The translations under genes and the position numbers were made by a program. From positions 1 to 62,457 of IMG/VR virus record IMGVR_UViG_3300021468_000003: a stretch of DNA of 62,457 bases, one strand, 5' to 3'. Position 1 is the stretch's first letter; every line of letters starts with the position of its first letter. This DNA comes from a virus. The notes beneath the pieces were generated by a model that saw only the letters and a program-made list of their open reading frames with translations, did not search any database and was not told the DNA's origin. Below are positions 2,430 through 53,173 of the stretch, piece by piece.

Positions 2430-2848
2430 GAACACAGGAAGAAATAATGGCAAGGATAGAGCAGAGAAAAGATAAAGACCCACTCGGATTTGAATTTCCA
2501 CATTATCTAAGCAGGCTTGACTATGAGCATGCAAAACCCTATCTAAAACCCGAAACAACGAAAGAAGAATGGGACAAAGTCCGAAAAGGATTTGAAAACA
2601 TTCGTCAAGAGATGATTGATTATATGCCTTTTGCTTGGGAGAAAGCCAATAGCAAGAGAGGCATATCTGCTAGTAGGTCAATACATCATTACATTGCGTG
2701 GTTGTGGTTGGAAGGCGAGTGGCCTGATGATGAGATTGATGTTCTTGAAAACTATAGTTATTACGGGAAGGACGAACTTAGGAAGATATGTGAATATTTG
2801 GGGTTAGACCCTGATAAGTTTGATGATGGGATAAGAGAGAATTGGTGA
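2426..2848 (+). CDS. hypothetical acidic protein
   Basis: A 140-residue product with ATGA overlap to the preceding gene. It is rich in charged residues and aromatics (HYIAWLWLEGEWPDDEIDVL; YYGKDELRKICEYLGLDPDKF), suggesting a compact helical protein. The coding sequence is more AT-rich than its neighbours. No membrane segment, no metal motif and no recognised family. Confidence 0.6.
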   Translation: MRTQEEIMARIEQRKDKDPLGFEFPHYLSRLDYEHAKPYLKPETTKEEWDKVRKGFENIRQEMIDYMPFAWEKANSKRGISASRSIHHYIAWLWLEGEWPDDEIDVLENYSYYGKDELRKICEYLGLDPDKFDDGIRENW

Positions 2849-2861
2849 AGGAGGAAGAAAG

Positions 2862-3092
2862 ATGAAAAATGAAGATTGGCAATGGCCTCATGAAGATTAC
2901 ACAGAGTATCTTGATGAGGAAGCGAAGGTAGAGATATATGTAGACCCTTCCGTGGAAGAAGATGGAGATGGGTCATTAGAGCGCCCATTCAAGCGGTTAA
3001 ATAAAGCACTAGAGAAAGGGTGGTCACTCCCAGAGGGGAGATGGCCAATGTATCTTATCAAGAATAGTAGTTGGGGAATTGGGCAAGGTTGA
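2862..3092 (+). CDS. small hypothetical acidic protein
   Basis: A 76-residue product starting 8 bases after an AGGAGG. The N-terminal half is acidic (EDYTEYLDEEAKVEIYVDPSV). The middle phrase DGDGSLERPFKRLNKALEKG resembles the start of pectate-lyase-like phage proteins, but the protein is too short to form a beta-helix. It may be a fragment or a free capping peptide. Function unknown. Confidence 0.5.
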   Translation: MKNEDWQWPHEDYTEYLDEEAKVEIYVDPSVEEDGDGSLERPFKRLNKALEKGWSLPEGRWPMYLIKNSSWGIGQG

Positions 3093-3103
3093 GAGAGGAG
3101 AAG

Positions 3104-3406
3104 ATGGTGACCATTGAATTTCAGAAGCAAAGAGAAGCCTCGGCAGAGGACTTGTCGAAGGTAAAGACATTCAAGAAGCTAGTCATCTACAAAGACGACG
3201 CTAACAAGATCGTCTTCAGCAACTTGGCCCTAGCCACCGCCAGGCGGGAAGGAGAGAAACTCGTGATCGAGGTTGTGGCCAAGAAAATAAAGCTCCTGAC
3301 TATTGAGGAACGCAGGTGCGATGTTTGTGGGAGAACAACAGGAACGTTCGAGACAACAAAGGACGGAACGATCTGCACGAAGTGCAAGGAGGCACTATGG
3401 ACGTGA
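3104..3406 (+). CDS. zinc-ribbon protein with C-terminal CxxC pairs
   Basis: A 100-residue product. ATG 3104 is chosen because GAGAGAGGAGAAG precedes it. The N-terminal two-thirds is beta-rich and basic. The C-terminus carries CDVCGR and CTKCKEA, two pairs 20 residues apart as in a zinc ribbon. It overlaps the following gene by 10 bases. A nucleic-acid-binding role is plausible but inferred. Confidence 0.55.
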   Translation: MVTIEFQKQREASAEDLSKVKTFKKLVIYKDDANKIVFSNLALATARREGEKLVIEVVAKKIKLLTIEERRCDVCGRTTGTFETTKDGTICTKCKEALWT

Positions 3407-3699
3407 AGATGATTCGGACGGAGAAGTTATATAGGCTGCTGCCTGCGCAGAAAACCCTTCCTTGGGGATTACGCTGGCTCAAGCCTTGGGTGTTGCGCAT
3501 CCTAGACTGGTTGAAACAGTACGATGACAGGGTACGTCAGGCGGAAGTTGTGACCTACACCATCAAAGAGGACGAGGTGTACAATCTCGTGATGAAAGCC
3601 TGGGAGGAGGCCAAGTTCACCTGGCACGCAAGCATCAGGTTCCTCTTGATCGGGACCAAACAATGGAAAGAGTTGACGGGGAGCTTGCCGGAGGCATAG
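3397..3699 (+). CDS. hypothetical basic protein
   Basis: A 100-residue product starting behind AAGGAGG, inside the end of the previous gene. It is basic and Trp/Leu-rich (LPWGLRWLKPWVLRILDWLKQYDDR), perhaps amphipathic. The frame stays open for 52 more codons after its TAG stop, ending at the next gene's start (see findings). No family recognised. Confidence 0.5.
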   Translation: MDVKMIRTEKLYRLLPAQKTLPWGLRWLKPWVLRILDWLKQYDDRVRQAEVVTYTIKEDEVYNLVMKAWEEAKFTWHASIRFLLIGTKQWKELTGSLPEA

Positions 3700-3765
3700 G
3701 GAGCTTTTACCCTCGAAAAGGGAGGTTTCACTCTCGAGAAGGGAGTACCTTGGCAATTCCTCGGT

Positions 3766-3858
3766 TTGAAGGTGATCGTGGTGCCTTGGATGGACGGGGT
3801 CGTAGTGTTGCCGGAGGTAAGTGAGTTTTGCTTGGGTTGTGAGAGGAGGTGCAAATGA
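3766..3858 (+). CDS. possible tiny Cys-containing ORF after an in-frame TAG
   Basis: The frame is open from 3700 to TGA 3856-3858, continuous with the preceding gene across its TAG. Only TTG 3766, GTG 3781 or ATG 3790 could start it independently, and none has a good ribosome site. The last residues (FCLGCERRCK) hold a CxxC and the stop overlaps the next ATG. It may be a readthrough extension, a coupled peptide or decay. Confidence 0.25.
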   Translation: MKVIVVPWMDGVVVLPEVSEFCLGCERRCK

Positions 3859-4298
3859 ACGAAGAGAAAGCTGTCAATGAGGCACTAGCTCTTATACAGG
3901 CATTGGAGAGTGGAGAAAGAAAGGCCCTTGATAAATGCGAGCAAGCCTCTTACTACTGCAAGAAAGCTGGCAACAACTTCCTGGTTTACTTTTTCAATAT
4001 CCCAATCAAGAACAGATTGATCTGGAGAAGGTTGCGAGAGCGACATGGAGTGGAGTGTGTATATGATCTAGATGAATTTGATAGGGTGGAGAGAAAGCTA
4101 AAAGCTAAAGTAAGAAAAGCATTAGCACAATTCATTAAAAGGTCAGGGGTTAAGAGTTTGACGTTCTTCGTAAATGGAGATTTGGATGGGCAAAAAGAGT
4201 TCATGCAAAAATTTGGTTTAGATGATTATCAAGCGTTAGTTTGCTATGAGGCTCTGAGAGCCTGGAAATGGTTGAATAGAGGGTTTTTTGAGGACTAG
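3855..4298 (+). CDS. hypothetical helical protein
   Basis: A 147-residue product. ATG 3855 follows GAGAGGAGG at good spacing. It is largely helical and charged, with a basic central part (DRVERKLKAKVRKALAQFIKRSG) and an aromatic C-terminus. The gene is AT-richer than its neighbours. No motif identifies a function. Confidence 0.55.
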   Translation: MNEEKAVNEALALIQALESGERKALDKCEQASYYCKKAGNNFLVYFFNIPIKNRLIWRRLRERHGVECVYDLDEFDRVERKLKAKVRKALAQFIKRSGVKSLTFFVNGDLDGQKEFMQKFGLDDYQALVCYEALRAWKWLNRGFFED

Positions 4299-4314
4299 GT
4301 AGAAAGGAGCAAGG

Positions 4315-4608
4315 ATGAACGAGGAAATGTTTCAGTGGCTAAAGGAGTTCGCTCCGAAGGCCTGGGATTTGGCAGTGCGTCAAGTGTGGATTGATGCGTT
4401 GGAGATGACGGCGGCCTTCGGCTTCTTCTTGTCTATTTTTATCTTGGCGCTGTTGAGAGGAAGAAGGAAGAGTTTTGATGAAATTACGTTTGCATCCTTA
4501 GCGGTTCTTGGAGTCCTCGGCTTTATCTTTGCGCTCCTCTTCTTTTTCGAGGCCCTCCCAAGGATGCTGAATCCAGAGTTCTACGCTTTGTTGGAGTTGA
4601 AGCCATGA
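4315..4608 (+). CDS. two-helix membrane protein
   Basis: The 97-residue product has two clear hydrophobic segments (near residues 32-48, AAFGFFLSIFILALLRG, and 60-79, LAVLGVLGFIFALLFFFEAL) separated by a basic loop (RGRRKSF). The ribosome site is AAAGGAG. Size and topology would suit a holin-like or envelope-associated phage protein, but it lies far from the endolysin gene, so I leave the role open. The stop overlaps the next ATG (ATGA). Confidence 0.55.
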   Translation: MNEEMFQWLKEFAPKAWDLAVRQVWIDALEMTAAFGFFLSIFILALLRGRRKSFDEITFASLAVLGVLGFIFALLFFFEALPRMLNPEFYALLELKP

Positions 4609-4910
4609 CAAATGTTGATGATGTTGCAGGTGTTGTCCTGGAGCTGAAGGACGGGCGCAAAGTCAAGTGCAGTGTGCTAAGAGTGTACAAGATGGTGAGG
4701 GAGGTCATTCGCCACGAGGGAGCAGAACACATTTCTCTGGAGTTTTTGACCCTTCCTCCGACGATCGAGATCCCCGAGAAGTGCAGTCTGTGCCCCTATT
4801 CAACGTGGACGGGCCCTTTCTTGGTTTGCGGTCATGAGGAGTTGAGAGGGCGTGACGTCTGGGGCCTGGAGCGCCCTCCTTTGGAATGTCCGTTGAGGAG
4901 GAAGAGGTAA
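4605..4910 (+). CDS. Cys-rich protein with CxxCPY ... CGH ... CPL motif
   Basis: A 101-residue product. The C-terminal half carries CSLCPYS, then CGHEEL, then PPLECPLR. The same C-x2-C ... CGH ... CPL layout appears in the gene at 57,736-57,951 and is frequent in small phage proteins of unknown role. Four Cys and one His suggest a zinc site. Translationally coupled to the membrane-protein gene by an ATGA overlap. Confidence 0.55.
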   Translation: MTNVDDVAGVVLELKDGRKVKCSVLRVYKMVREVIRHEGAEHISLEFLTLPPTIEIPEKCSLCPYSTWTGPFLVCGHEELRGRDVWGLERPPLECPLRRKR

Positions 4911-5036
4911 ATGAAGATAAGACGCACAATCACGGTGAGGTTGACTCCTGAGGAGGAGTTTTGGATCGTTGTGGAGTGGTGTAGGAAGCGAAGAGAGGCA
5001 GTTGAGGCTGTGCTTAGGAACGATCGCATTCGCTGA
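4911..5036 (+). CDS. small basic protein (ribbon-helix-helix-like start)
   Basis: A 41-codon ORF starting immediately after the previous stop, with GAGGAGGAAGAGG upstream. It begins MKIRRTITVRLTPEEE, a strand-then-helix opening like small ribbon-helix-helix DNA-binding proteins, but is short for a full domain. The frame continues past its TGA for 30 codons rich in Cys (5,037-5,129). Confidence 0.45.
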   Translation: MKIRRTITVRLTPEEEFWIVVEWCRKRREAVEAVLRNDRIR

Positions 5037-5138
5037 CCGTTTCCGGCTGAGTGCAAGGAGTTTCCTTGCGACACTCTTTATTGCAATGCAGATGTTTGTG
5101 AGAATGGGTTTGCTTATAGAATGTCATAGGAGGAAGAG

Positions 5139-5363
5139 ATGGCTAAGGCTTTCATTTGTGAGAAGTGTGGAGAGGTAGAGAGAATGGCATCATTCAACTA
5201 CCTTATCACAAGGAATGTTTGTGGGTTGCATGTAGTAAGAATCGACGCAATCTCTCCTTCTGAACCCGATTACTGCAGGAAGTGCTGGATCGAGGTATTG
5301 GAGGTCATCCTAGAAAGGTTGAAGAGAGGAGAAGGGATTGAGTTCAAAGGAATGGAGGATTGA
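5139..5363 (+). CDS. small zinc-binding protein
   Basis: A 74-residue product starting behind TAGGAGGAAGAG. It has CEKCGE at residues 7-12 and YCRKCW in the second half, two Cys pairs fit for one zinc, followed by a helix (VLEVILERLKRGEG). Role unknown. The next gene starts within the same ribosome-site region. Confidence 0.55.
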   Translation: MAKAFICEKCGEVERMASFNYLITRNVCGLHVVRIDAISPSEPDYCRKCWIEVLEVILERLKRGEGIEFKGMED

Positions 5364-5365
5364 CG

Positions 5366-5695
5366 ATGAAAAAGTTGATTATTGTTGCTGTTGTCTATGG
5401 AGTGTTGTGCTCCTGCGGGCTTGCAGAGAATATGGCTTTGAGGAAGCGGGTCCTGGAGGACCCGATGACTTCCGCCAGGGCGAGAGAAGCGATCAAGAAA
5501 GGGAGAATCTTTGTTGGAATGACGAGGGACGAGCTCCTAGCGAGTTGGGGGCCCGCCAAGTGGTGGTCGCCCTGCTCCAGGAAGTTCACGCTCGGCGGGG
5601 AGGAGTATGAGACTCTTGACTTCTCCTCAATCCACGACTGTTCCATTGTGGTGTACCTAAAGGAAGGGAGGGTAATTGGATGGAAACAAAATTAA
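5366..5695 (+). CDS. exported BamE/SmpA-like small lipoprotein
   Basis: A 109-residue product. ATG 5366 is chosen over TTG 5360 because of GGAGG spacing. The N-terminus (MKKLIIVAVVYGVLCSCGLA) is a signal sequence with possible lipobox cysteines. The body contains IFVGMTRDELLASWGPA, the hallmark of SmpA/OmlA/BamE domains in which a GMT-x-D-E-L helix precedes W/F-G-x-P. In bacteria these are envelope lipoproteins. A phage copy expressed with early-type genes could alter the host surface, for example in superinfection exclusion; that is inference. Confidence 0.5.
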   Translation: MKKLIIVAVVYGVLCSCGLAENMALRKRVLEDPMTSARAREAIKKGRIFVGMTRDELLASWGPAKWWSPCSRKFTLGGEEYETLDFSSIHDCSIVVYLKEGRVIGWKQN

Positions 5696-34975: not shown

Positions 34976-37498
34976 TTACACGATAAATTTCCGGTATTTC
35001 CCAAACTTGTGGCTTCGTTTCTTGGTGTGGAGTCTACGAAAAATGGACACAGCCTTGGCAGGGACGTTCCTACAAGCTGTGAGAGCGAGGAAGTTCTCAA
35101 CAGCCTCCGTCATCATCATGGCGTCGGCATAATCGGGGGAGAAACCTAGGCGGGCTTTGAATGCGATTTTGTCCTCCATCGCTATTGGGCCTTTTGAATA
35201 GTCAAAGCGAAGGTTCGCAAGCTCTTTCTTCAGCCTCTCCGGAGGGTCAACGGGGAAGTTGTAGGTGGGGAAGTTCTTATGGAGCTTATAGTAGTTCTCC
35301 GCTCGTTTGTCCTTGTACATGAGCTGATGATGGGCTTTTTCAGGCCCTACAAAGCCGAGGACAGGGAAGCGGTTGAGCTTCGCCAGGTTCGAGTAGGTAC
35401 CTGCGCCAAGCCCGTGGGCGTCAATGACTGCACAAAACGGACGGTTGATATACATGGTTCTCCAGATTCTCTCAACTTCATCAGCAACGAAGGTGGGGTC
35501 AGTCTTATAAAACTCATCCCACCGAACAAAAGAGTTGCCTATGCGGTGACAGAAGACACAGACGTCCGGCCCTCCTCCGGCAACGTCCACACTGAGGATA
35601 ACTGGGCCCTCTGTCATGGAGCGCTGAGTTGCTACGACTTTGTCGTAGACCTCTGGAGCCACAACGACGCTCTCATTGACGTCAATTGGCAGCCCCAAGA
35701 CCTTCGCCCTGTACATCGGAGAGTCTTTGCCGTAAATGTGGATAATTGTTTGGATGAACTCCTCATCGACGAGTGGGGAGTCCATGACGTTGTAGAAGAG
35801 AACCTTGAAGTCCTTTCCTTTCCCTTCAGGGTCGGAAATGACATCGTAGTAGAACCCTCCGGTGGAGACGGGGTTGGAGATGAGGAGGATGTAGGAGTTC
35901 TTATCGGTCATTGTGCCCACGAGGGCGGTGAAGACGGGATCAGGCACACCACTGTTGCCTGTCCAGTAGGCAACTCCGTTCCGTCGCACATAGATAGTAT
36001 GATGAGGTTCAGTTGAAACGCACCAAATTCTTCCTTTATAATGAATTGGTTTTATGTTGTGTTGCCTCACTTTAAAATCAGTAGAGGAGTTTGAAACTAT
36101 TGACACTACATAGTCATTATCTGAAGTTGTAGCAAAATGGTCTTTGATGAATTTTACTTGTCCTTTAATATTTCTTCTCGTTATTGTTGAGTACAGTCCG
36201 CACTTGATTGCCACTTCTTGAATATCGTCAGCAAGTTGTTTTGACATAGTATATATTATATGTCTGTTTTCAGTTTGAGTGTAACCGTCGCCTTTTATCA
36301 ATGCTGCTAGCAACATAAACAAGTATTTTTTATCAAGATTCTTTACGTATAATGGGATTTGTTTGTTTTTCGCTCCTTTTCCACAAGCAAGCAACTCGTT
36401 GTATAGTTGACTACAGTAAATTTTGATGTCGTTGTTGTGGATAGAGTACTTGTATCCTAGCCTATCTAACAGATTGCAAATAGCAGTTCTGCCTTGTTCA
36501 TCTGCTTGTGTTATTCCCACGTATCTATCTTGGATCAAGTAGCCCTCAGAGATATACCAACCAAGCAATTGGCACCAATCACTCAACTCTACAGGTTTTG
36601 GCGGATAGTATTTTCTTGGAGTTCTGTATTCCTTGAGTATGTACAGTTTCTCGTCTTTCCCTTTAAAATTGACTGTTTTAGGAATAAGCCAAGGAGTCTT
36701 CTTTGAGATGTCAAACTCACACATTTCTTGTATTCTGATTCCTGTGTTTCGCTTGGCTCTAGTATTACGTCTTCTGAAGACGACATTGTGGTGAGGAGAA
36801 AACATGAAACTCATGGTTCTGGACTTGTAATAGTACATGAGACCATCGTAATCTTCGTATTTGAAGATTCCTGTGATTGGCTTGTATTCAGCTTCCTCAG
36901 TTAGTGGATCCATTGTGAGGACTTTATGGTAAGTTTGGATTGAGTCAATTGTTTGCCAACCGTAGTCAGTAAGTATCTCAGTTTTATCGTCGAAGCAAGC
37001 CTCGTCCACCTCAATGAGGATTGAGGGAGCATGGAAGCCCGCAAGAGTATCATTGAGTTCCCTCTTATCCTTGCTAACTGTCCTCGCAGTTGCATACCAC
37101 TCACGGAAGCCCTCGACGTACAGCCTCCCCTTCACACGCTTGAACAACTTCGCAAGCCGGCACCTCTTCAACCAGGTGTCGATCTCCGACCAAAGGACGT
37201 CATTCAGCTGTTTTGCTGTGGGAGCGGTCGTGGGGACTTTTGCGAAGGGATGCGTAGTGAGGAACCAGAGGATGAGGATGGCGGAGACTGCGGTCTTTCC
37301 TATTCCACCACCTGCTGAGACGCATACATACCTGTTTTTAACGAGATGATGGGCAATCTCCTCCTGTTGCCAGGTCAACCCTGAGAGTTTGAGGCCCTCG
37401 AAGGAGATGTATCTGTTTGCCCAGCCGACGGGGTCATCCCTGTACTGCTGTGAAATCTCATTTACTATCTTTAACGTCTTTCTTTGTTTTTGATTCAC
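34976..37498 (-). CDS. terminase large subunit interrupted by an intein
   Basis: An 840-residue precursor; removing residues 168-515 leaves a 492-residue terminase. The ATPase domain has Walker A SAGGGIGKTA (61-70) and Walker B LIEVDEA (161-167). The C-terminal RNase-H-like nuclease shows SVDVAGGGPD, AVIDAHGLG and SPDYADAMMM, whose acidic residues bind metal. TerL pumps and cuts DNA at the portal. The intein sits immediately after the catalytic Walker B acids, so the enzyme is inactive until spliced. Overlaps the small-subunit gene by 41 bases. Confidence 0.88.
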   Translation of the reverse strand: MNQKQRKTLKIVNEISQQYRDDPVGWANRYISFEGLKLSGLTWQQEEIAHHLVKNRYVCVSAGGGIGKTAVSAILILWFLTTHPFAKVPTTAPTAKQLNDVLWSEIDTWLKRCRLAKLFKRVKGRLYVEGFREWYATARTVSKDKRELNDTLAGFHAPSILIEVDEACFDDKTEILTDYGWQTIDSIQTYHKVLTMDPLTEEAEYKPITGIFKYEDYDGLMYYYKSRTMSFMFSPHHNVVFRRRNTRAKRNTGIRIQEMCEFDISKKTPWLIPKTVNFKGKDEKLYILKEYRTPRKYYPPKPVELSDWCQLLGWYISEGYLIQDRYVGITQADEQGRTAICNLLDRLGYKYSIHNNDIKIYCSQLYNELLACGKGAKNKQIPLYVKNLDKKYLFMLLAALIKGDGYTQTENRHIIYTMSKQLADDIQEVAIKCGLYSTITRRNIKGQVKFIKDHFATTSDNDYVVSIVSNSSTDFKVRQHNIKPIHYKGRIWCVSTEPHHTIYVRRNGVAYWTGNSGVPDPVFTALVGTMTDKNSYILLISNPVSTGGFYYDVISDPEGKGKDFKVLFYNVMDSPLVDEEFIQTIIHIYGKDSPMYRAKVLGLPIDVNESVVVAPEVYDKVVATQRSMTEGPVILSVDVAGGGPDVCVFCHRIGNSFVRWDEFYKTDPTFVADEVERIWRTMYINRPFCAVIDAHGLGAGTYSNLAKLNRFPVLGFVGPEKAHHQLMYKDKRAENYYKLHKNFPTYNFPVDPPERLKKELANLRFDYSKGPIAMEDKIAFKARLGFSPDYADAMMMTEAVENFLALTACRNVPAKAVSIFRRLHTKKRSHKFGKYRKFIV
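35954..36997 (-). mobile_element. intein with LAGLIDADG homing endonuclease in terminase
   Basis: 348 residues (168-515 of the precursor) begin with Cys in CFDDKTEILTDYGWQTIDSI, a standard intein start. Block B-like FSPHHNVVF follows, then two LAGLIDADG-type helices (LLGWYISEGYL and LLAALIKGDGYT). It ends with HHTIYVRRNGVAYWTGN before extein Ser. The penultimate residue is Gly rather than the usual His, which some splicing inteins tolerate. The DNA is clearly more AT-rich than the flanking terminase, consistent with recent acquisition. Confidence 0.87.
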
Positions 37499-39373: not shown

Positions 39374-40478
39374 CCCCCAAGTCTGAGAGCAGCTCAAGGA
39401 GTTCTTTGAACTGGTCTCTTGTTATTTCTGTGTGAAAAGTGCGGATGAGGTCTGCAAGAGGGAGGCGCCCTCCCCTTGCGCTCAACAACTGCACTGTCTT
39501 GTATGCGTAATGTGCTAGCTTGTTTGGAGACGAGAGAATGAAGGCGATGCGCATCTTCCTCTCGATTCCATCAAACATCTCCACAGAGGTCTCAATGTCG
39601 CTGACGTCCACAACCAACCTCTTGTCTGCGAGAGCTAGCAGAGCTGCAATCTTGAGAACGTGGGTCTTGACTTTGCGCTCCTGATAGGCGACGAGGCGGT
39701 GGTCCTGGGAGGCGTCAATCTCCTGTGAGATGTACCAATCCCTATAGAAGTCCTCTGCTGTCCTGCTTATCTCGATCTCGTTGTAAAGCTCCCCCATCCA
39801 CAACAGGTGCTCGATGAGCCTTTCCCTCGCTTTGAGCTGTGCGTCTGTAAGGGAGGGCGAGGGCTCCTTTCCTCGTTTCTTGTCCTCGTAGATAATGATC
39901 GTGCGGGCAAGGAAGCCGGTGGAGTTCATGTCAGAGACTACGTTTTCCCCAAACCACTCAGGCACGGCTGCTCCAATCAAGTTGAAATAGGGGTTCGTGA
40001 CCTCGAAGACTCCAGCGTTCTTTGTCTTGTAAATGAGGACGTCGTCCTTGTCCCAGATGTTCACGAGGAACTTCACCATGTCCACGCCAGAGGCGAGGAG
40101 CACGTTTAGTTCAGAGGCGACGTATGTGATGGAGGAGTGCCTGAACATCTTCCCCTTGACCTCGATCTGTTTTTCAAGCTCACACATCTCCATTATTATC
40201 TTTTCCTTAAGGACTGAGTCCTCGAAGACATTGTATCCCGCTTCCTTGAGGAGCCTCATCCCGATGGAGAGGGATGTGGACTTCGCACAGACACCTGGAG
40301 GCGCCACGAGGACGACGTACAAGTTGAGGAAGAGCTTGAAGAACCCTCGGTCGATCCACAACCGCTTCTCTGCTGCGCCCGCAAGGGTGGACATTGCCAC
40401 CCAGAGGTGCATGACCTCCGGCGTCTCGTTTCCTTCTGTATAAAAAAGGTAGTCTTCTACAAACTTCGGGTATTTCAT
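39324..40478 (-). CDS. DUF3987-like P-loop ATPase
   Basis: A 384-residue product. The beginning FVEDYLFYTEGNETPEVMHLWVAMSTLAGA and the degenerate Walker A (VVLVAPPGVCAKSTSLSIG), followed by FNLIGAAVPEWF and MNSTGFLARTIIIYEDKK, match the DUF3987 / phage replicative helicase-like family. It overlaps the polymerase gene by four bases. A role in loading or powering replication is inferred. The C-terminal 80 residues look like a winged helix. Confidence 0.62.
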   Translation of the reverse strand: MKYPKFVEDYLFYTEGNETPEVMHLWVAMSTLAGAAEKRLWIDRGFFKLFLNLYVVLVAPPGVCAKSTSLSIGMRLLKEAGYNVFEDSVLKEKIIMEMCELEKQIEVKGKMFRHSSITYVASELNVLLASGVDMVKFLVNIWDKDDVLIYKTKNAGVFEVTNPYFNLIGAAVPEWFGENVVSDMNSTGFLARTIIIYEDKKRGKEPSPSLTDAQLKARERLIEHLLWMGELYNEIEISRTAEDFYRDWYISQEIDASQDHRLVAYQERKVKTHVLKIAALLALADKRLVVDVSDIETSVEMFDGIERKMRIAFILSSPNKLAHYAYKTVQLLSARGGRLPLADLIRTFHTEITRDQFKELLELLSDLGDAHVEVKEGKKYLVAE

Positions 40479-42793
40479 ACCTTGAGCTCATTGTAGACTT
40501 TTTCTATATCGTTCAAGTCTTTGACCTCTTTGAGTGTACCCCAGGAGTAGCCGAGCTCGAAATCGAGGGGTACTACGAATGTGAGGCCGTTGACTGTTAT
40601 AGGGACTTCAACCAGCTTCTTCATTGCATACATGCACTTTATGATGGTTTCAAGGTCATCGTCTACTTGGCAGAGGATGGAGTCGTAGACTGAGAGACGA
40701 AACTCCCAGGAAGGGAGATCCTCTTCGTAAATGCGTATCAACCCCTCGTTGAGGTAGTCCGCAGCAGTGGACTGGGGTTCTGCTGCGATGGCCTCACGGA
40801 ACGTTTTGTCGTTGAGGGGCCCGAAGAACTGGATTACTCTGCCAAAGACAGTGCGGATCACCCTTTCCCTCTTGACTTGCCTCTCTACCCGCTGCTGCCA
40901 CTCCCTCAGACCAGGCCGAATCTCGTAGTACCTTGCTTGGAGCTCCGCAGCTTCTCTTTCGGAGCAACCGAGGATAGCAGCCATTAGGCGCTTCCCTAGG
41001 CGGTAATGTGTGCCGTGCGCTATGCGTTTCGCTGTGTAGCGGTGGGTGGCTTTATCAACTTTGTCGTAAGGGATATGGAAGAGGAGTGCCGCTGTCTCTG
41101 TGTGAAGGTCTGTCTCATCAAACTTTCGCAACCATTCCTCATTACCGCTAAGCGCAGCGACAATGCGGGCCTCCACTTGGGAGAGGTCGGCCTGAATGAA
41201 AATTTTGCCCTCATCAGCCTTGTAGAAGGTGCGAGTTTCTTTAGGGATGTTTAGCAAGTTTTTCCCTGAGCCTGTGATGCTTTCTGAGGACGCAAACCTG
41301 CCGGTGTAAGTGCCGTGGATCTTCAGTGCTGTTCGTATCCTTATGTCGGGGTCGTACTTGAGGTTGTAGAAGTCTCGCTTCTTCTTTGTTTCCCTGAGCT
41401 TTCTTATGAGACCAATGTGCAGCTTGAAGGGTGTCGGCATCCTCTCCAACTTCTGGAGCTTCTCATCATTTGTCGTAACCTTCCCATGTTTCTTTTGCAC
41501 GGGGAGCTGCCAGTCCTTGTAGATGAGCTTCTTGAGCTGAACGTGAGAATTTGTGTTGACATCGCCTATTGTTTGCTCCTTGATTGTTTCAAGGACTTCG
41601 ATTGCCCGCTCATTTTTCTTGCGGAACTCTTCAATGGCGTACAGATCGAGTTTTGTGCCCCGAACCATAGCGAAGAGGCAGGGGCGGATGAGGGACATCA
41701 TGCGGTTGTAAGCCTTGCGGGTGCCCCACTCATCTATCTCTCGCTGTTGAACTTCCATTATCTCGTATGTCAAGCAGCAGTCCTTCCCGCAGTAGATGTA
41801 GAGGGAGTCCCAGTCGACGGCGCCCCTCTTCACATCTTTCAGATAGTCCTTGACATCTTCGCCTTCCTTCAGGTCCTTCCAGTAGGGCTCGTTTGTGTAG
41901 ATGGAGGCGCAGAACGCTAGGGACTTGAGGAGCGTAGGGTAGATTGCGTGCTGGGCCAGCATGGTGTCGCAGTAGATGTTATTGTTGAGGATTTTGTAGT
42001 AGTAAGCGTTGTGCATACAGTCAAAGAGGGCGTTGTGGAAGACCTTGGGTGTGGAGGAGGCACAGAAGCGGGAGAGTTGGCGGAGGACAATCGGGTGGCG
42101 GAGGAGCTCCTTGGAAAGAACAAAGGCTTCTTTCTTGGAGGTCGCCATGCCATAGGCAACCATCACCGGCCCAGTTGTCTCGATGTCGCACACCACAGAA
42201 GAGGGGTAGTCTGTGAGGTTGTGAAGGAGTTTCAGAGCCTCGGTCTCGTTCGTAACAGTGCGAATGTTGCGCTCAGGATAAAGAATCTCTGGGAATTTGG
42301 ACTCACGGGCAGCCTTCTTCAAATCAAGGATGCAGATAGGCTCGAAGCGTCCGTTCCCCCTTATGATGTTCCCTGGGTGGATGATGGGGAGGACTTTGAG
42401 ACCTGGGACGAGGGTGCAAGGGAGGATGGCACCACGATACTTCGTAATTTGGGGACGGTTTGTGAGGACGTTCAGCGCCTTTGCACCTACAGCGATGACA
42501 AGGTTGAGACCTTCGGCCTTCAGTCGCTCCAGGTCCTCGGCTAGTTGCCTCCGGCCTTCAGCAATCACTTCCTGGGACAGGGTGTCATATCTGTTCTTGA
42601 ACGGACGCTTGTGGACAGTGTTCGTCACGAAGCACTCATGCCACTTGAGGCCAGCGAAACGGAACCACTTCCGAAGAATCTGTCCCTCGTACCCAATGAA
42701 AGGCTTGCCCCTGCGGTCTTCCTCTTCCCCAGGCGCCTCGCCGACGACGCAAATCTTAGCTGGGTTTTGTGGGACCTGTTGGATTAGGCGCAT
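40475..42793 (-). CDS. uracil-DNA glycosylase / DNA polymerase A fusion
   Basis: A 772-residue fusion. Residues 1-170 are a family 4/5-type uracil-DNA glycosylase (GEAPGEEEDRRGKPFIGYEG at 18-37; TNTVHKRP; IIHPGN). Residues 195-345 are a 3'-5' exonuclease (DIETTG 203-208; FHNALFD; YCGKD). Residues 370-772 are a family A polymerase: TGRF (497-500), motif A ADLSQVEARI (535-544), motif B RYTAKRIAHGTHYRLG (585-600) and motif C SVYDSIL (701-707). Motif C departs from the usual VHDE in two positions. ATG 42793 overlaps the methyltransferase stop. Confidence 0.85.
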   Translation of the reverse strand: MRLIQQVPQNPAKICVVGEAPGEEEDRRGKPFIGYEGQILRKWFRFAGLKWHECFVTNTVHKRPFKNRYDTLSQEVIAEGRRQLAEDLERLKAEGLNLVIAVGAKALNVLTNRPQITKYRGAILPCTLVPGLKVLPIIHPGNIIRGNGRFEPICILDLKKAARESKFPEILYPERNIRTVTNETEALKLLHNLTDYPSSVVCDIETTGPVMVAYGMATSKKEAFVLSKELLRHPIVLRQLSRFCASSTPKVFHNALFDCMHNAYYYKILNNNIYCDTMLAQHAIYPTLLKSLAFCASIYTNEPYWKDLKEGEDVKDYLKDVKRGAVDWDSLYIYCGKDCCLTYEIMEVQQREIDEWGTRKAYNRMMSLIRPCLFAMVRGTKLDLYAIEEFRKKNERAIEVLETIKEQTIGDVNTNSHVQLKKLIYKDWQLPVQKKHGKVTTNDEKLQKLERMPTPFKLHIGLIRKLRETKKKRDFYNLKYDPDIRIRTALKIHGTYTGRFASSESITGSGKNLLNIPKETRTFYKADEGKIFIQADLSQVEARIVAALSGNEEWLRKFDETDLHTETAALLFHIPYDKVDKATHRYTAKRIAHGTHYRLGKRLMAAILGCSEREAAELQARYYEIRPGLREWQQRVERQVKRERVIRTVFGRVIQFFGPLNDKTFREAIAAEPQSTAADYLNEGLIRIYEEDLPSWEFRLSVYDSILCQVDDDLETIIKCMYAMKKLVEVPITVNGLTFVVPLDFELGYSWGTLKEVKDLNDIEKVYNELKV

Positions 42794-44058
42794 TTTTTCT
42801 CCTCGATGTAAGCAATTGTTGCTGAGATGCTTTTGTTGTAATGACGTTCGAGCTTTTCGCAGCCGATGAACTGCCTGTTGGTGTCGTAACACGCTCGGAT
42901 AGTGGAGCCACTCCCGCAGAAGACGTCGAGGACGGTGTCGCCTGGGGAGGAGAATGTCTGGATAATGTCGATGATGAGGGCCTCCGGCTTTTGAGCAGCG
43001 TGAAAGCGCTTGCCTGCTGGAGGAGGTGGGTAGGTGAAGATGTTGGAACGGCCTTGTTTGGTGAGACGGGCGTCAGGGGTAGTGTATGCGTACAGGGCGA
43101 TTTCGGCGGCACACCCGACACGGAGGGTTGATTGAATTGACCGCCCCGTTGCCCCCGATTTGACCCATATCAACGGCACCCTTGGAACGTAGAACCCTGC
43201 ACGTTCAGCCATGACACACACGGCCTCATACAATTGATATGACGTCCACAAAACCATGTACCGCCCGTCACGAAGGACACGGCGGAAATGGGGCATACAT
43301 GCCTTCAGCAGGGCGACGATGTCAGCCTGCTCGTCTTCGTACGCTTCCTCCGGAGAGGCGACAACATCATCCAAGTTGATGCCATACGGTGGATCAGTGA
43401 GTACTAGATCCACCGAGGCATCGTCGAGGGTGGAGAGGAAGGAGACGGCATCCCCTAGGCGATAGTTCGCCAGAAGGCCCTCGAAGTCAATTTTAGCTTT
43501 CGCAGCCTTCGCCTTCTCAACTGCACCGAGTATCTTCTTTTTTTCTTCAGCATCCATCCTGCGAACAGCTTCACTCACGGAGGTTGCGTCCTTAACAAGC
43601 TCCTCGTTGTCAGCGATCTTCAGGAGCCGACTAACCATAGCAGGGTCTTTGCCCAGGAGTTTCGCTGTGTCCTTCACAGTCCAACCGCCAGTGTGTCCTG
43701 GGACGGGGCGCCCCTTCTCTTCGACGCCCCTCTCATGGATAGCTTTGACCAACCGAGCGATTTCGACGGGCTTCAGGTCCGAGCGTTGGATGTTCTCTTC
43801 GAGCTGGGCCACGAGGTCGTCGATGCCCTCCCTCAAGATGAAGTGTTTTCCCTCCTCCAGGTAGGTTAGTCCGAGGTACTCGGTGAGGGCAATGAAGCGA
43901 CTGCGGCCCGCTCTCACAATGTAGGAGTCCCCGACTTTCTCCACAAGGATTGGCTGTAAAAGCCCGACGTTCTTGATGGAGAGGGCCAGGTCTCCAATTC
44001 CTTCTCGCTCTTCCCTGAAGTCGCTTTCGAAGATAAATTGCTCAGCTGGTACACGCAT
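42784..44058 (-). CDS. ParB-like nuclease domain fused to DNA methyltransferase
   Basis: A 424-residue product. Residues 1-195 resemble ParB/Spo0J: LALSIKNVGLLQPILVE, VRAGRSRFIAL, and an HTH (GWTVKDTAKLLGKDPAMVSRLLKIAD). Residues 200-420 form an N6-adenine/N4-cytosine methyltransferase with DPPYG (222-226, catalytic) and FCGSGST (380-386, AdoMet binding). Such fusions are frequent in phages and prophages. It may protect DNA from restriction or mark it. It lies between Sak4-type recombination genes and the polymerase. Confidence 0.82.
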   Translation of the reverse strand: MRVPAEQFIFESDFREEREGIGDLALSIKNVGLLQPILVEKVGDSYIVRAGRSRFIALTEYLGLTYLEEGKHFILREGIDDLVAQLEENIQRSDLKPVEIARLVKAIHERGVEEKGRPVPGHTGGWTVKDTAKLLGKDPAMVSRLLKIADNEELVKDATSVSEAVRRMDAEEKKKILGAVEKAKAAKAKIDFEGLLANYRLGDAVSFLSTLDDASVDLVLTDPPYGINLDDVVASPEEAYEDEQADIVALLKACMPHFRRVLRDGRYMVLWTSYQLYEAVCVMAERAGFYVPRVPLIWVKSGATGRSIQSTLRVGCAAEIALYAYTTPDARLTKQGRSNIFTYPPPPAGKRFHAAQKPEALIIDIIQTFSSPGDTVLDVFCGSGSTIRACYDTNRQFIGCEKLERHYNKSISATIAYIEEKKCA

Positions 44059-46192: not shown

Positions 46193-46395
46193 TCGGAGCC
46201 TCCGGCGAGGAGTTTCTTGAACAGCTCCTCGTTCTCTTTCTTCTTCTTTGACGAAACCTTGCGTTTGCGCAACGCCTTCTTCGTCTTCGCCTCCAAGGCT
46301 CGGAGCTGCTCCTCGTTGAGGGTACGCACGATTTCCTCAATGTCAGCATCTGTCATCTCATGCAAGGGCTTCTTCAGCAGGTCTTCGAACTTCAT
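46189..46395 (-). CDS. small Lys-rich protein
   Basis: A 68-residue product, helical, with an acidic first half (MTDADIEEIVRTLNEEQLRALE) and a strongly basic second half (KKALRKRKVSSKKKKENEELFKK). It overlaps the neighbouring genes by four bases on each side. DNA or RNA binding is plausible from charge. Function unknown. Confidence 0.5.
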   Translation of the reverse strand: MKFEDLLKKPLHEMTDADIEEIVRTLNEEQLRALEAKTKKALRKRKVSSKKKKENEELFKKLLAGGSE

Positions 46396-46772
46396 GACAG
46401 CAGCTCAACCACCTTGCCGAATTTGCCTGCGACGAAGGCTTTCTGCACTTCACTCATCAGGTCGGGGTTCTCCAAGAGGGAGTCACGGTTGTCCATGATG
46501 AGCTGGAGCGCCTGAGCCTTTGTGGATGTGCGGGCACCTTGGCCTGGGCGGTACGCAGCGACTGCGGCGTCAACTTCTTCTCTGTCCTTCCCCTGCTTGA
46601 AGGCTTCACGGGCGATGGCCTGTTGCTTGACTCGGAGAGCAGAATTGATGAGGTAGAGGACGCCCTGTGGGGTGTAGACCTCGATGGCCTCCTCGACATC
46701 CTTGGGCATTACCAAAGTAAATTCCCATTCGTTTCCGTCCTTTGTCTTGACGATTCCTGTTTCAGTACGCAT
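46392..46772 (-). CDS. hypothetical phage protein after the repeat array
   Basis: A 126-residue product, first gene downstream of the array, preceded by AAAGGAGGATTTTT. It is mixed alpha/beta with WEFTLVMPKDVEEAIEVYTPQGVLYLINSALRVKQQAIAREAF. A related layout is common in phage replication modules. Function unknown. Its transcript may begin upstream of, within or after the array. Confidence 0.5.
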   Translation of the reverse strand: MRTETGIVKTKDGNEWEFTLVMPKDVEEAIEVYTPQGVLYLINSALRVKQQAIAREAFKQGKDREEVDAAVAAYRPGQGARTSTKAQALQLIMDNRDSLLENPDLMSEVQKAFVAGKFGKVVELLS

Positions 46773-46830: not shown

Positions 46831-46858
46831 TGAGAGGGTGGGCGTTCGCACCCTCTCA
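46831..46858. repeat. 10-bp perfect hairpin at the downstream edge of the array
   Basis: TGAGAGGGTG and CACCCTCTCA pair perfectly around the 8-base loop GGCGTTCG. It lies 37 bases from the last repeat core of the array, on the side of the next leftward gene. Could terminate or stabilise a transcript of the array. No T-run follows on either strand. Confidence 0.55.
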
Positions 46859-46895: not shown

Positions 46896-47409
46896 TGGCT
46901 CACTTATCTACTCTGGTTTCCTTAGCGCTCGTGGTTCACTTGAAACCCTTTGGTTTTCTTGCATTCAATGGTTCACTCCATAGTGATGGATTCCTTGAGG
47001 AATGTGATTCATTCGTCGCTCTTGGGTTTCTTTTGCCAGTTGATTCACTCCATTTCCCTGGTCTCCTTGTTGACAATGATTCACTTAGCGGCCTTGGTTT
47101 CCTTCATGAGCGTGGTTCGCTCGACAACGATGGTCTTTTTGCCGATAGTGGCTCACTCTCAGCCCAAGGGTTTCTGTCCTGACATGGCTCACTTTTTGCT
47201 CGTGGGTTTCTTTTGTTTGCTGGTTCACTTCCCCGAACTGGGCTTCTCGTGCACAATGGTTCACTTCTCGAAACTGGTTTTCTTGTTTTTGATGGTTCAC
47301 TTTTATAAGATGAGCTCCTTAATATGTCTGATTCACTCTTACAGAATGGATTTCTTAGATTGTGTGATTCACTTCTAAAGACTGGTTTCCTGCCTTATTG
47401 TGATTCACC
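46896..47409. repeat. 18-bp-periodic array of two alternating 9-bp cores (29 cores)
   Basis: Plus-strand cores of type A (TGRYTCACT, 15 copies) alternate with type B (TGGNTTYCT, 14 copies). Core starts are 46,896, 46,914, 46,932, 46,951, then every 18 bp to 47,401; only one step is 19. Between cores are 9-base segments that differ in almost every unit. On the minus strand the cores read AGTGAACCA and AGGAAACCA. The array begins 3 bases after the stop of the HNH/Transposase_20-like gene. No frame is fully open on either strand. Not CRISPR: repeats and spacers are too short. Function unknown. Confidence 0.9.
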
Positions 47410-47412
47410 TTT

Positions 47413-48354
47413 TTAGTAAACCCACCCCCTTTCCTCAGGCATAATCATCCTTTCATGCCCCAAGTGTGCCACGGGGTAAACTGGGTCTGTCGGCAATCCA
47501 GCGATCGTCCGCCCTACATACCACCAGTCGGCGAGAAAGTGCTTCATTATCGCTCGCATAGCTGCGCTGTGACGGTGCGAAGGCTTCGTCTCACACCAAG
47601 GCTTCTCTATGAGCTTCCCCTGAGTGTTTCTTGTTTTGACGATGCGACGGCTGTTCTCAAGCCGCTTCTTCACCCTGTCGTAGACCTTGCGGTAGGGCCC
47701 TCGGCTCTTGACTTGGGAGTCTGCGAGAGTGTAGAGGGCTGTCCGGAGGGTCTTGTTTCCGCCGGAGGCTTCGCCTTTCGTGTACCTCTCGTGGGAGGCG
47801 CAGTGGAGTCCAGTGTACTTCCACAAGGAAGACGCATGTTTCGCTTTTTCAAGCCGGATGTACACTAAGCAGAAGGCAACCGTCATAGGCCCTACGCCTC
47901 GCACCCCAAGAGCAGCTTTCGCCAACGGGGAGTCGATGGACTTCACGAACTTCTCCACAGCCCGACTCCTCTCCCTCAACTTCAACTCGACCCCTCGGAG
48001 CTGGGCCTCGAGCCAGGCGACAGTGTCGGGGTTGAGGGAGTCGGTTTGGCGCTTGTAAGCGAGTAGCTGGTTTGCGAACTTGTTGCGCAACTTCAGGATC
48101 TGCTGGCGGTCGTCAACCAGGCGTTTTAGTTCGTCGAGGTCGGCAGGGCGGATGACAAGGTTGCCGTGACGCTGCATGTGGGCAACGGGGTGGACAACCC
48201 TGGTGTTTTCGTCTGTGTAGGTTCCACCTTGTGCTTTTGGAGTAATGCGGTCGGTGTCGAAGAGAGCTGTCCACTCCTCTAGCAAGACGTTTGAGAGGGC
48301 ACATTCGCCGTTTTGCCGCTCTTTGATTTTCTTCTTGAGAGCCTCTTTTGCCAT
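47413..48354 (-). CDS. HNH-like protein with IS110/IS116-type Transposase_20 domain
   Basis: A 313-residue product. Residues 13-65 look like an HNH nuclease: GECALS, FDTDRITPKAQGGTYTDEN, then HPVAHMQRHG, with D, N and H residues suited to metal binding. Residues 70-140 form a coiled-coil linker. Residues 145-235 match Transposase_20 of IS110/IS116 elements: the hairpin GVRGVGPMTVAFCLVYI, then LWKYTGLH, GGNKTLRTALYTLAD and PYRKVYDR. The DEDD domain of IS110 recombinases is absent. The stop codon is 3 bases from the periodic array, which suggests a functional link. Confidence 0.65.
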   Translation of the reverse strand: MAKEALKKKIKERQNGECALSNVLLEEWTALFDTDRITPKAQGGTYTDENTRVVHPVAHMQRHGNLVIRPADLDELKRLVDDRQQILKLRNKFANQLLAYKRQTDSLNPDTVAWLEAQLRGVELKLRERSRAVEKFVKSIDSPLAKAALGVRGVGPMTVAFCLVYIRLEKAKHASSLWKYTGLHCASHERYTKGEASGGNKTLRTALYTLADSQVKSRGPYRKVYDRVKKRLENSRRIVKTRNTQGKLIEKPWCETKPSHRHSAAMRAIMKHFLADWWYVGRTIAGLPTDPVYPVAHLGHERMIMPEERGWVY

Positions 48355-48366
48355 GACTTCTCCTTT

Positions 48367-50196
48367 CTAGTACCTGATGATAAGGTTGCCTGAACGCTCC
48401 ACCTCGATGGCGTCCATCACTTTAAGGAAGGTCGCTTTCCCAAGGACGTTCTGGGCCACCTTTTGCTTTGCGAGGATGTCCTCCCTCGTGCAGATGCCCA
48501 TTTTCCAGAGAGACTCCGCCCTCTTTCTCCCAATTCCTGGCAACCTGACGAGATCAATGAGCTTCGCAGGAACGCCGGACTTAAGCATCATCTCTAGCAC
48601 CTCCGTGTACTCTTTGTTGAGGCCCGCAATCCGCAGGGCGGCGCAAATCCGCTCTACATCGGCGAGGAACCCGAAGACCACGGTGGAGACGAAGTCCGTG
48701 ACGGGCTTTCCTGAAAGCCAGTGGTAGATTGCGGTTGCGAGGATTGTCTGCGCTCCGTAGGGGAGTTTGATGACGTCCTTGAGGGTGTCAGGGATGAAGG
48801 TGTCGTACGCCAGCGAAGGGATGTTGGCGAATGCTTTTGCAATGAGGGTTGGGGCAGTTGGCTTCGAGCTCAAGTTTGCCTTCAGGTGGTACAGGTCTAT
48901 GGGGTCCACGTACATGAGGGCAGCGGCTCGGCCCACAGAAGAGACTGTGGGGAAGTCCTTAGGCCCACGGACGATCCCGTATTTGCGCAGGAGCTCCATT
49001 GCCTCAGCGGGGGCATCCCCAAGCAGATCCTGGTGGGCCGCAAGAGTGGAGTCGAGGAAGTTGGAGATGTCATGCGCATCCATCCCCTCACGGGCGATAA
49101 ACGACACAAGGTGGAAGTATATCCTCCTCGGGAGGACGCTCTTCACCTCTGGCACGTTCATTACCTCTTCACGCATCTTCTCAAAGTACCAGTCCATGAA
49201 GATGTAGTAGACCACGCCCTTCTCACTGAGGCCGTATCTGCCGATTCTCCCTGCCTCTTGTTTGATGTCAGCTGGGTCGACGAGGGTGGGGCCTCGGTGG
49301 CCGCCCACAATGACGCCCACGTCTGCCGGCAAGTTGACACCGTACGCTAGGGTGGAGGTTGAGACCATCACCCGCAAGCGGCGCTCCCTGAAGGCCTCCT
49401 CGTAGGATGCTCGCTTCTCCTTCGGCACCTTACTGTAGTGAAAGGGGCAGTCCAGCACCTCTGCGAGCCTCCTTCCCGTTCCTATGGAGTGGACGAAGAT
49501 GAGGAACTGGGAGCCTGGATGGCGGTTGAGGATGCGAGCTATCTCCTCAGTCGCCTTTGCCAAGAAGCCCCAGTTCGTATCCGGCGCTCGGATGAAGTGA
49601 TGCTCCTGGATGACGGGGCGCCAGTCTGTTTTGACGACTCTCGTGGGCTTGGAGTTGAGACGTGTGAGCCAGGAGCCGAGCTCATCTGCGTTTGGGATTG
49701 TTGCGGAGAGGAAGATGATGCGGGCCTCAGGGTTGATTTGGGCGAATCTCGTTAGGCCGATCTCAAAGGCGTCCCCTCGTCCATACATGGAGAGCATGTG
49801 CGATTCGTCGCTGACGAGGGTGCCGATGGAGCGGAGCCAGCGCCTCGCTCCTCTCGTCTTCGAGTCCAAACACTCCGTGGTCATGAGAATGAGCTGCTCA
49901 TTGACAGTGACGCCTGGGCGGGAGTGATCACTTGTGAAGGCGACTCGCTTGTAAGGGACGTCTGCCCAGGAGTGGAGTTTTTCGTTTGTGAGGGCTTTCA
50001 GGGGGCTAAGGTAGAGGGCCTTGCGCCCGCCCTCGAGGGTGGGGAGCATGAACTGCTCAGCGACGATTGTCTTCCCGCTTGAGGTAGGAGCAAGGACTAC
50101 GAGGTTGCAGTTCTCCTCTACAAAGGGCCACGTTAGGCGCTGCAGTGGGTTGTAGGTCAGGCCTTTTGCTTTATGATAGTTAAGCATCTCGTTCAT
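48367..50196 (-). CDS. Ski2/Hel308-like superfamily 2 DNA helicase
   Basis: A 609-residue product. Motifs in order: Q-motif-like YNPLQRL, Walker A APTSSGKT (36-43), LSPLKALTNEK, MTTECLD, DESHML (130-135), LSATIPNADEL (164-174), IFVHSIGTGRRLA, VSTSTLAYGVNLP and QEAGRIGR (313-320). The C-terminal helix-hairpin-helix RLPGIGRKRAESLWKMGI (551-568) is typical of Hel308-type enzymes acting on forks and recombination intermediates. It starts one base after the preceding gene's stop. Confidence 0.82.
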   Translation of the reverse strand: MNEMLNYHKAKGLTYNPLQRLTWPFVEENCNLVVLAPTSSGKTIVAEQFMLPTLEGGRKALYLSPLKALTNEKLHSWADVPYKRVAFTSDHSRPGVTVNEQLILMTTECLDSKTRGARRWLRSIGTLVSDESHMLSMYGRGDAFEIGLTRFAQINPEARIIFLSATIPNADELGSWLTRLNSKPTRVVKTDWRPVIQEHHFIRAPDTNWGFLAKATEEIARILNRHPGSQFLIFVHSIGTGRRLAEVLDCPFHYSKVPKEKRASYEEAFRERRLRVMVSTSTLAYGVNLPADVGVIVGGHRGPTLVDPADIKQEAGRIGRYGLSEKGVVYYIFMDWYFEKMREEVMNVPEVKSVLPRRIYFHLVSFIAREGMDAHDISNFLDSTLAAHQDLLGDAPAEAMELLRKYGIVRGPKDFPTVSSVGRAAALMYVDPIDLYHLKANLSSKPTAPTLIAKAFANIPSLAYDTFIPDTLKDVIKLPYGAQTILATAIYHWLSGKPVTDFVSTVVFGFLADVERICAALRIAGLNKEYTEVLEMMLKSGVPAKLIDLVRLPGIGRKRAESLWKMGICTREDILAKQKVAQNVLGKATFLKVMDAIEVERSGNLIIRY

Positions 50197-52203: not shown

Positions 52204-52977
52204 TCACACTCTAGCTAGGTAGCTCCAATCAGTCGTCATTACCTTTGCTATCATCATCTCCATCCCTTCGGAGAAGGACTCCGCCACTGAGCGTTTGCGC
52301 CCCCAGAGGGCCTCCTTCGACCGGCTAACAACTGCACGCTTCAAGTTAAAATCGGTGATTCCGCAGGAAGAGCAGACCTCAACAACTGCCTCTTCGAGCT
52401 CTGCCACCTTCTTTCCACGCCTCCTCCTCTCTTCGACGGCCTCCTCCAAAGGGGCGTCCACGAAGTCCTTATCAAGCAGTTTTACTACCGTCTCGACGAG
52501 GGACGGCGACTTTAGGTTGTACTCCATGAAGGAGAAGGCGATTGTCAGGAGGTAGGACTCGTATCCGCAGGAGCGGGCAAGCTCCTTTTCCTCCATACTC
52601 GGCACCTCTGCGAGCTTGTGCATGTAGAGGTTGTAGAGCTTCGTTGCCTTGTCCTTGATGTTGTCCCCTTTTTCGATGTTGAAGATGATGGGGAGCTCCC
52701 TCACCCAGCGAGGGGCGACGATGCAAGGGACTTCGACGTCCCCTCCCTTAGACTTGTGCAAGCCAGCAAGGCGGTGTTGACCGTCCACAACCTCGAAGGT
52801 GCCATCCTCCCCAGGGACGACAAGCAGGGGGATGAGGAAGCCGTAGAAGATGCTCCCGCTTAGCTTGTTCACCAGCGTCACTGACAAGTTTCGCTGGAAG
52901 GGCGAGTTCTTGAGTAAGTGCCTCGGGATGAGGCGAAATTCCAGTTCTACGCCTTGCCTGGGTTCTTTAAACTTCAT
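52204..52977 (-). CDS. ParB-like nuclease-domain protein
   Basis: A 257-residue product. Start chosen at ATG 52977, five bases after GGGAGG. The ParB/Srx-type core is visible: NKLSGSIFYGFLIPLLVVP, EVVDGQHRLAGLHKSKG (near 67-80) and VPCIVAPRWVRELPIIFNIEKGDN. The C-terminal half is helical with charged segments (VEERRRRGKKVAELEEAVVEVCSSCG). A second ParB-like domain occurs at 42.8-44.1 kb. Could act in plasmid-like partition, transcription or as a DGQHR-type modification protein. Confidence 0.6.
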   Translation of the reverse strand: MKFKEPRQGVELEFRLIPRHLLKNSPFQRNLSVTLVNKLSGSIFYGFLIPLLVVPGEDGTFEVVDGQHRLAGLHKSKGGDVEVPCIVAPRWVRELPIIFNIEKGDNIKDKATKLYNLYMHKLAEVPSMEEKELARSCGYESYLLTIAFSFMEYNLKSPSLVETVVKLLDKDFVDAPLEEAVEERRRRGKKVAELEEAVVEVCSSCGITDFNLKRAVVSRSKEALWGRKRSVAESFSEGMEMMIAKVMTTDWSYLARV

Positions 52978-53173
52978 CATCACCTCCCGTTATTCTGTCA
53001 AAACATTCCTCACAAAGGCCACTTATCAGATACTCTCTGCGACCAGCTTCAGAGTAGCAATGGTCAAGCGCAGGCCTTCCGCATTGGATACATACTCCCG
53101 CAGCTATTGCTTCCCTTCGAGATTGTCCGAAAATCTCCTCACTTAGTTTTTCCTTTAGATCGTTGAACTTCAT
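52967..53173 (-). CDS. small zinc-binding phage protein
   Basis: A 68-residue product. CIQCGRPALDHC, then the phrase GRREYLISGLCEECFD form two Cys pairs. The SGLCExCFD ending is a widespread signature of small phage proteins of unknown role. Overlaps the ParB-like gene start by 11 bases. Confidence 0.6.
   Translation of the reverse strand: MKFNDLKEKLSEEIFGQSRREAIAAGVCIQCGRPALDHCYSEAGRREYLISGLCEECFDRITGGDDEV

What the first reader, a model, noticed from the sequence alone, without database searches (positions are those of the whole stretch)
46896..47409. Unexplained 18-bp-periodic bipartite array downstream of an HNH/Transposase_20 gene
Seen: 29 conserved 9-bp cores, alternating types A (TGRYTCACT) and B (TGGNTTYCT), almost perfectly every 18 bp, with unrelated 9-base segments between them. 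The array starts 3 bases after the stop of 47,413-48,354 and ends 37 bases before a 10-bp hairpin. No reading frame is fully open on either strand. It is not a CRISPR, a microsatellite or a simple duplication, because spacers vary while register is held. Inference: it could be a transcribed non-coding RNA belonging to the upstream protein, as with guide RNAs encoded beside IscB/TnpB/IS110, or a binding array for a protein such as the ParB-like ones encoded at 42.8 and 52.2 kb, or a decayed repeat gene.
Basis: partly seen in the sequence, partly recalled or inferred. Interest (0 to 1): 0.88.

Follow-up and report, generated by a model that had tools for sequence, protein, structure and literature searches.

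The report
Phage TIGR guide array with TasH
This is a phage-borne copy of TIGR-Tas, an RNA-guided DNA-cutting system described in 2025, with 14 split-guide units encoded next to its HNH cutting enzyme TasH; comparison with a sister phage suggests that the guides are exchanged much faster than the genes around them.

Summary
In detail: 29 cores (15 type A, 14 type B) alternate every 18 bp, with one 1-bp slip, across 46,896-47,409 on the minus strand. No reading frame is open, in the window or in its relative.

It is a TIGR array, and the gene upstream is TasH. The AlphaFold2 model of the protein matches the TasH-tigRNA-dsDNA cryo-EM structure (9w04, TM 0.85, 52% identity), and its family profile hits the PDB TasH chain at 6e-101. 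SpTasH of Salicola phage CGphi29, the published reference, is 52% identical. The repeats are 10 nt and the spacers 8 nt, giving the 16 variable nt published for SpTIGR.

What is added: a collinear sister phage (85-95% identical DNA) has a 96% identical TasH, but only 13 of the 28 spacers are recognisably shared (11 identical). Whole units are gained, lost or replaced inside the array. A TasA family shows the same.

No natural target was found: no self-target, and no excess over control in 1.4 Mb. New member of a known kind.

The parts
47413..48354 (-). tasH gene, 313 aa (N-terminal HNH nuclease + coiled coil + Nop-like/Transposase_20 RNA-binding domain)
   Evidence: Transposase_20 aa 151-221; PDB TasH profile hit E=5.8e-101; AF2 model vs 9w04 TM 0.85, 52% id
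48157..48354 (-). HNH domain of TasH (about aa 1-66); D33, R36, G43, G44, N50, H59, H63 invariant in nine TasH relatives including the biochemically active SpTasH
47938..48144 (-). two long helices (aa 71-139) at the place of the coiled-coil dimerisation region
   Evidence: secondary structure of the model
47692..47904 (-). Transposase_20 (IS110 C-terminal, Nop-related) match, aa 151-221
46896..47409 (-). TIGR array: 15 edge repeats (core AGTGARYCA) and 14 loop repeats (core AGRAANCCA), 14 tigRNA units of 36 nt, starting 3 nt after the tasH stop codon
47401..47409 (-). first (degenerate) edge repeat core, GGTGAATCA
46896..46904 (-). last edge repeat core, AGTGAGCCA, closing unit 14
46932..46959 (-). 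unit 13 spacer B region with the single 1-nt slip in the array (10 nt between loop core 46951-46959 and edge core 46932-46940)
46833..46858 (-). 10-bp hairpin 37 nt beyond the array, kept identical in the sister phage; possible transcript end, no U-run

Best explanation
The element is a TIGR-TasH system carried by a tailed phage. The array would be transcribed from the minus strand together with or just after tasH, and cut within the edge repeats into 14 tigRNAs of 36 nt, each edge-half / spacer A (8 nt) / loop repeat / spacer B (8 nt) / edge-half. A TasH dimer binds one tigRNA through the conserved ends of the repeats. Spacer A pairs with one strand of a DNA target and spacer B with the other, and the two HNH domains cut both strands. 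Shown here: array anatomy, TasH identity by sequence and fold, conserved HNH residues, and linkage. Taken from the published work on SpTasH and TaTasR: processing, pairing rule, cleavage. Inferred: that this copy is active, and that its purpose is competition with other mobile DNA. Spacers are renewed, mostly as whole units, much faster than the surrounding genome. The confidence given is for TIGR-TasH identity; for the competition role it is about 0.5 to 0.6.
For: Protein: family profile hits PDB TasH (21kl and 7 further entries) at 5.8e-101; AF2 model matches 9w04, the TasH-tigRNA-dsDNA complex, TM 0.85/0.86, 52% id; 51.8% id over 98% to the protein of Salicola phage CGphi29, which PMC12045711 names as the TasH reference. 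HNH residues invariant. Array: alternating repeats with 8-nt spacers = 16 variable nt, as stated for SpTIGR; starts and ends with the edge type; on the tas strand directly downstream, as described. The CGphi29 locus contains arrays of the same repeats at L034:6972-7359 beside its TasH. Linkage: all 4 TasH relatives found in IMG/VR have an array beside the gene; of 23 records searched whole, most drawn by their arrays, 16 encode a Tas. Turnover.
Against: No transcript data. No natural target could be found, so function is inferred. The UG box D of TasR arrays is AG here. The hairpin after the array is not a canonical terminator. Seven array-bearing records have no Tas by profile, so array and gene are not always found together, though those records may be incomplete and two of them (L019, L024) show only a few cores.
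Confidence: 0.96

Rival explanations
1. A TIGR array that serves TasH not to attack competitors but to regulate or cut the phage's own or the host's DNA (gene regulation, host takeover, genome mobility).
For: Natural targets are unknown; the system sits in the replication/recombination region (helicase, exonuclease, Sak4-like annealing protein, polymerase), and PMC12045711 lists regulation and mobility as open options.
Against: No site in the window's own genome matches any of the 14 units with 0 or 1 mismatch, although few would be expected by chance either. Rapid spacer renewal would be odd for fixed self or host targets.
Confidence: 0.25
2. A centromere-like or iteron-like array bound by a ParB-type protein encoded nearby.
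For: A ParB_N-domain methyltransferase (42784-44058) and a weak ParB-like protein (52204-52983) are in the phage; iterons are phased repeats; PMC12045711 reports a TasParB linked with some TasA genes.
Against: Neither gene is next to tasH; arrays in unrelated viruses go with Tas genes. The reported TasParB link is with TasA, not TasH.
Confidence: 0.02
3. A decayed gene for a protein with 12-residue repeats (for example SEPxxxRNPxxx read on the minus strand, or GSLxxxGFLxxx on the plus strand).
For: 18-bp register is a multiple of 3, and two frames are nearly open.
Against: All six frames have stops in the window and in the sister phage. Spacers differ completely between sisters while repeats do not; 1-nt slips occur without loss of repeat structure.
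Confidence: 0.01

Closest known systems
TIGR-TasH of Salicola phage CGphi29 (SpTIGR/SpTasH; PMC12045711; PDB 9w04, 21kl, 9vzx and others)
   Same: HNH-Nop protein of similar length, 52% identical; 16 variable nt per unit; alternating edge/loop repeats; array just downstream of tasH; phage genome
   Different: Different phage (no DNA-level match to any INPHARED record over 44.0-50.5 kb); different spacers; 14 units in one array
TIGR-TasR (TaTasR, PDB 9mty) and TasA systems
   Same: Same array logic and Nop core (TM 0.53 to 9mty); CCA at the repeat end
   Different: RuvC or no nuclease instead of HNH; 18 variable nt per unit in TaTIGR and FpTIGR; UG rather than AG at the repeat start in TasR arrays
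IS110/IS621 bridge-RNA transposases (8wt6, 8wt9)
   Same: Related RNA-binding C-terminal domain (Transposase_20; TM 0.43-0.47)
   Different: No DEDD recombinase domain here, and an array instead of one bridge RNA
CRISPR arrays
   Same: Repeats interspersed with variable spacers that turn over
   Different: Two alternating 10-nt repeats, 8-nt spacers, no cas gene among the neighbours examined, internal rather than leader-end change

Membership tests
TIGR-Tas (TasH type) | Nop-domain Tas protein of the TIGR clade | tested here: met
   PDB TasH profile hit 5.8e-101; fold match 9w04 TM 0.85
TIGR-Tas (TasH type) | N-terminal HNH nuclease with conserved catalytic motif | tested here: met
   D33, R36, G43, G44, N50, H59, H63 invariant in nine TasH incl. 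SpTasH
TIGR-Tas (TasH type) | Adjacent array of two alternating 8-12-nt repeats with short spacers | tested here: met
   10-nt repeats, 8-nt spacers, 14 units, 3 nt from tasH
TIGR-Tas (TasH type) | Array begins and ends with truncated edge repeats, then a terminator | tested here: inconclusive
   Begins (degenerate) and ends with the edge type; a hairpin follows but without a U-run
[quoted passage not shown]
   Both repeats begin AG and end CA; loop CCA, edge YCA. Seen by inspection of this array; no formal covariation test across families was done
TIGR-Tas (TasH type) | Processing to 36-nt tigRNAs and tandem-spacer guided DNA cleavage | not testable with these tools
   Needs small-RNA sequencing and a cleavage assay; the 36-nt unit length fits
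CRISPR-Cas | One repeat of about 25-36 nt, spacers of similar length, cas genes | tested here: not met
   10-nt dual repeats; no cas gene among the neighbouring proteins scanned
IS110 transposase | N-terminal DEDD RuvC-like domain (DEDD_Tnp_IS110) | tested here: not met
   Only Transposase_20 is matched; the N-terminus is HNH
TasParB-TasA operon | parB-like gene in the tas operon | tested here: not met
   Neighbours of tasH are a helicase (48367-50196) and a 126-aa protein with no Pfam or PHROG match (46392-46772); ParB-like genes lie 3.4 and 3.8 kb away
Known RNA family (Rfam 15) | Match at gathering score | tested here: not met
   No match in the window

The most novel reading that the evidence does not exclude
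TIGR arrays of sister phages gain, lose and replace whole paired-spacer units at internal positions while their tas genes stay nearly identical and no adaptation gene is evident. If general, this is a memory-like renewal of split guides, by recombination between arrays or by an unknown mechanism, driven by changing targets such as rival phages.
Probability: 0.4. Interest if true: 0.72.

Novelty: new member of a known kind. Interest (0 to 1): 0.42.

Why it matters
TIGR-Tas was described in 2025. [quoted passage not shown] The window and its sister phage form a natural pair in which that can be measured: same backbone, same TasH, different guides. A TasA family (L007, L021, L032) gives a second case. 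Such pairs point to which guides are under selection and where to look for targets.

Tried and rejected
Rfam scan of the window: nothing. Target search of the window's and sister's units, both geometries, gaps 0-2, against the window and six related sequences: 17 sites with 2 mismatches and 1 with 1 mismatch for the window's units, against 11.1 and 0.7 for mismatched spacer pairs, so no clear excess. IMG/VR scans for targets of units 7, 9, 10 and 2 gave 43-105 hits each, of the order I estimate for chance with 16 bases, and only 14 of 291 loci checked encode any relative of 15 proteins of this phage. The unit-7 guide pair was found only in the sister phage. No near DNA relative in INPHARED. 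Relatives by whole-genome kinship cannot be drawn for a virus record. The order of the two half-sites in the target was derived from the 8-nt 3' overhang rule in the paper; in the local searches both orders were tested, in the IMG/VR scans only the derived one.

Full report
Observation. The array is real and as described. On the minus strand the cores AGTGARYCA (A) and AGRAANCCA (B) alternate 29 times, every 18 nt, from 47,409 down to 46,896, with one 1-nt slip at unit 13. The base before each core is also semi-conserved, so repeats are 10 nt and spacers 8 nt. No comparable chain arises in Markov simulations of the window. None of the six frames is open, here or in the sister phage, so it is not a gene.

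The neighbour. The gene 47,413-48,354 encodes a 313-aa protein with Transposase_20 at aa 151-221 and an HNH motif at the N-terminus. A profile from its relatives hits the Protein Data Bank entries named TasH at 5.8e-101, then TasR (9mty) at 5.9e-38 and IS621 at 1.2e-05. Its AlphaFold2 model (mean pLDDT 87.7) matches the TasH-tigRNA-dsDNA complex 9w04 with TM 0.85 and 52% identity. The best named relative is the protein of Salicola phage CGphi29, the TasH reference of the discovery paper (PMC12045711).

What it is. [quoted passage not shown] Here A is taken as the edge repeat because the array begins and ends with it, and B as the loop repeat; there are 14 units. SpTIGR has 16 variable nt per unit, as here. 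The CGphi29 locus shows the same repeats beside its TasH (L034:6972-7359). The system is therefore a TIGR-TasH locus.

How common. The A-N9-B-N9-A pattern is in 26 stretches of IMG/VR, and a longer form in two contigs of bacterial MAGs. All four TasH relatives found by protein search have arrays beside the gene. Of 23 records searched whole with the Tas profile, most of them drawn by their arrays, 16 encode a Tas protein. Seven do not, nor any Transposase_20 match; they may be incomplete records, orphan arrays, or in two cases (L019, L024) only a few chance cores.

How it works. By the published work (PMC12045711), Tas proteins bind 36-nt tigRNAs cut within edge repeats; [quoted passage not shown] The anatomy here meets these requirements, but activity of this copy is inferred. 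The published E. coli tests of TasR showed loss of a targeted plasmid but no protection against conjugation or phage, so competition among mobile elements is the likeliest role, at perhaps 0.5-0.6.

Array turnover. The viral record G019 (IMGVR_UViG_3300025156_000011) is collinear with the window, mostly 85-95% identical. Its tasH is 91.7% identical in DNA and 96% in protein, and the 126-aa gene after the array is 95% identical. Yet of the window's 28 spacers 11 are identical, 2 have one change and 15 have no recognisable partner. At 8.3% divergence fewer than one spacer in 28 should differ at 3 or more of 8 bases. Units 2, 3, 6, 7, 9 and 10 are shared in order; unit 1, units 4-5 and unit 8 are replaced; units 11-12 are missing in the sister; unit 13 is altered by what look like indels; unit 14 shares spacer A only. 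A TasA family gives the same picture: L007 and L032 (tas 97.3% identical) differ by blocks of two whole units present in one and absent from the other at two internal places, and L021 (about 94%) shares only some units with either. Changes are mostly in whole 36-nt units and internal. This rests on a few pairs, and some pairing of spacers depends on the alignment. [quoted passage not shown] the words turnover and acquisition do not occur in its main text. Its supplement was not read.

Targets. None found. No window unit matches the window or the related phages clearly beyond control levels; 426 units against 1.37 Mb gave no exact target; four IMG/VR scans gave chance-like numbers.

Verdict. 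Interest lies in the sister-phage comparison rather than in the locus itself.

Noticed in passing
window 34976-37498 (-), insert about 35951-36998: The terminase large-subunit gene is interrupted by a likely intein with a LAGLIDADG homing-endonuclease domain (Pfam LAGLIDADG_3 at aa 393-445; terminase matches at both ends). The sister phage G019 lacks about 1.05 kb at this place, an apparent empty site.
   Followed up: partly
L003 about 4099-5463, L004 about 4348-4894, L009 about 2571-4145: Long TIGR-like arrays (up to 67 cores in L009) in related viral contigs with no Tas on the record; a separate small HNH protein of about 199 aa lies upstream. Possible orphan arrays or a Tas too divergent to detect.
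   Followed up: partly
L020 5623-7498: Two long, almost perfectly regular arrays flank a 201-aa gene in a viral contig with a T4-like Gp23 capsid protein, with no Tas detected on the record.
   Followed up: partly
window 42784-44058 (-): A ParB_N-like domain fused to an N6/N4 DNA methyltransferase.
   Followed up: no
window 40475-42892 (-): A family A DNA polymerase with an N-terminal uracil-DNA glycosylase domain.
   Followed up: no
L032 1975-2488 and L033 4242-6000: TIGR arrays with Tas genes in MAG contigs labelled Flavobacteriales and Spirochaetales; the Flavobacteriales contig has a Tas gene 97.3% identical to that of viral contig L007 and may be viral itself.
   Followed up: partly
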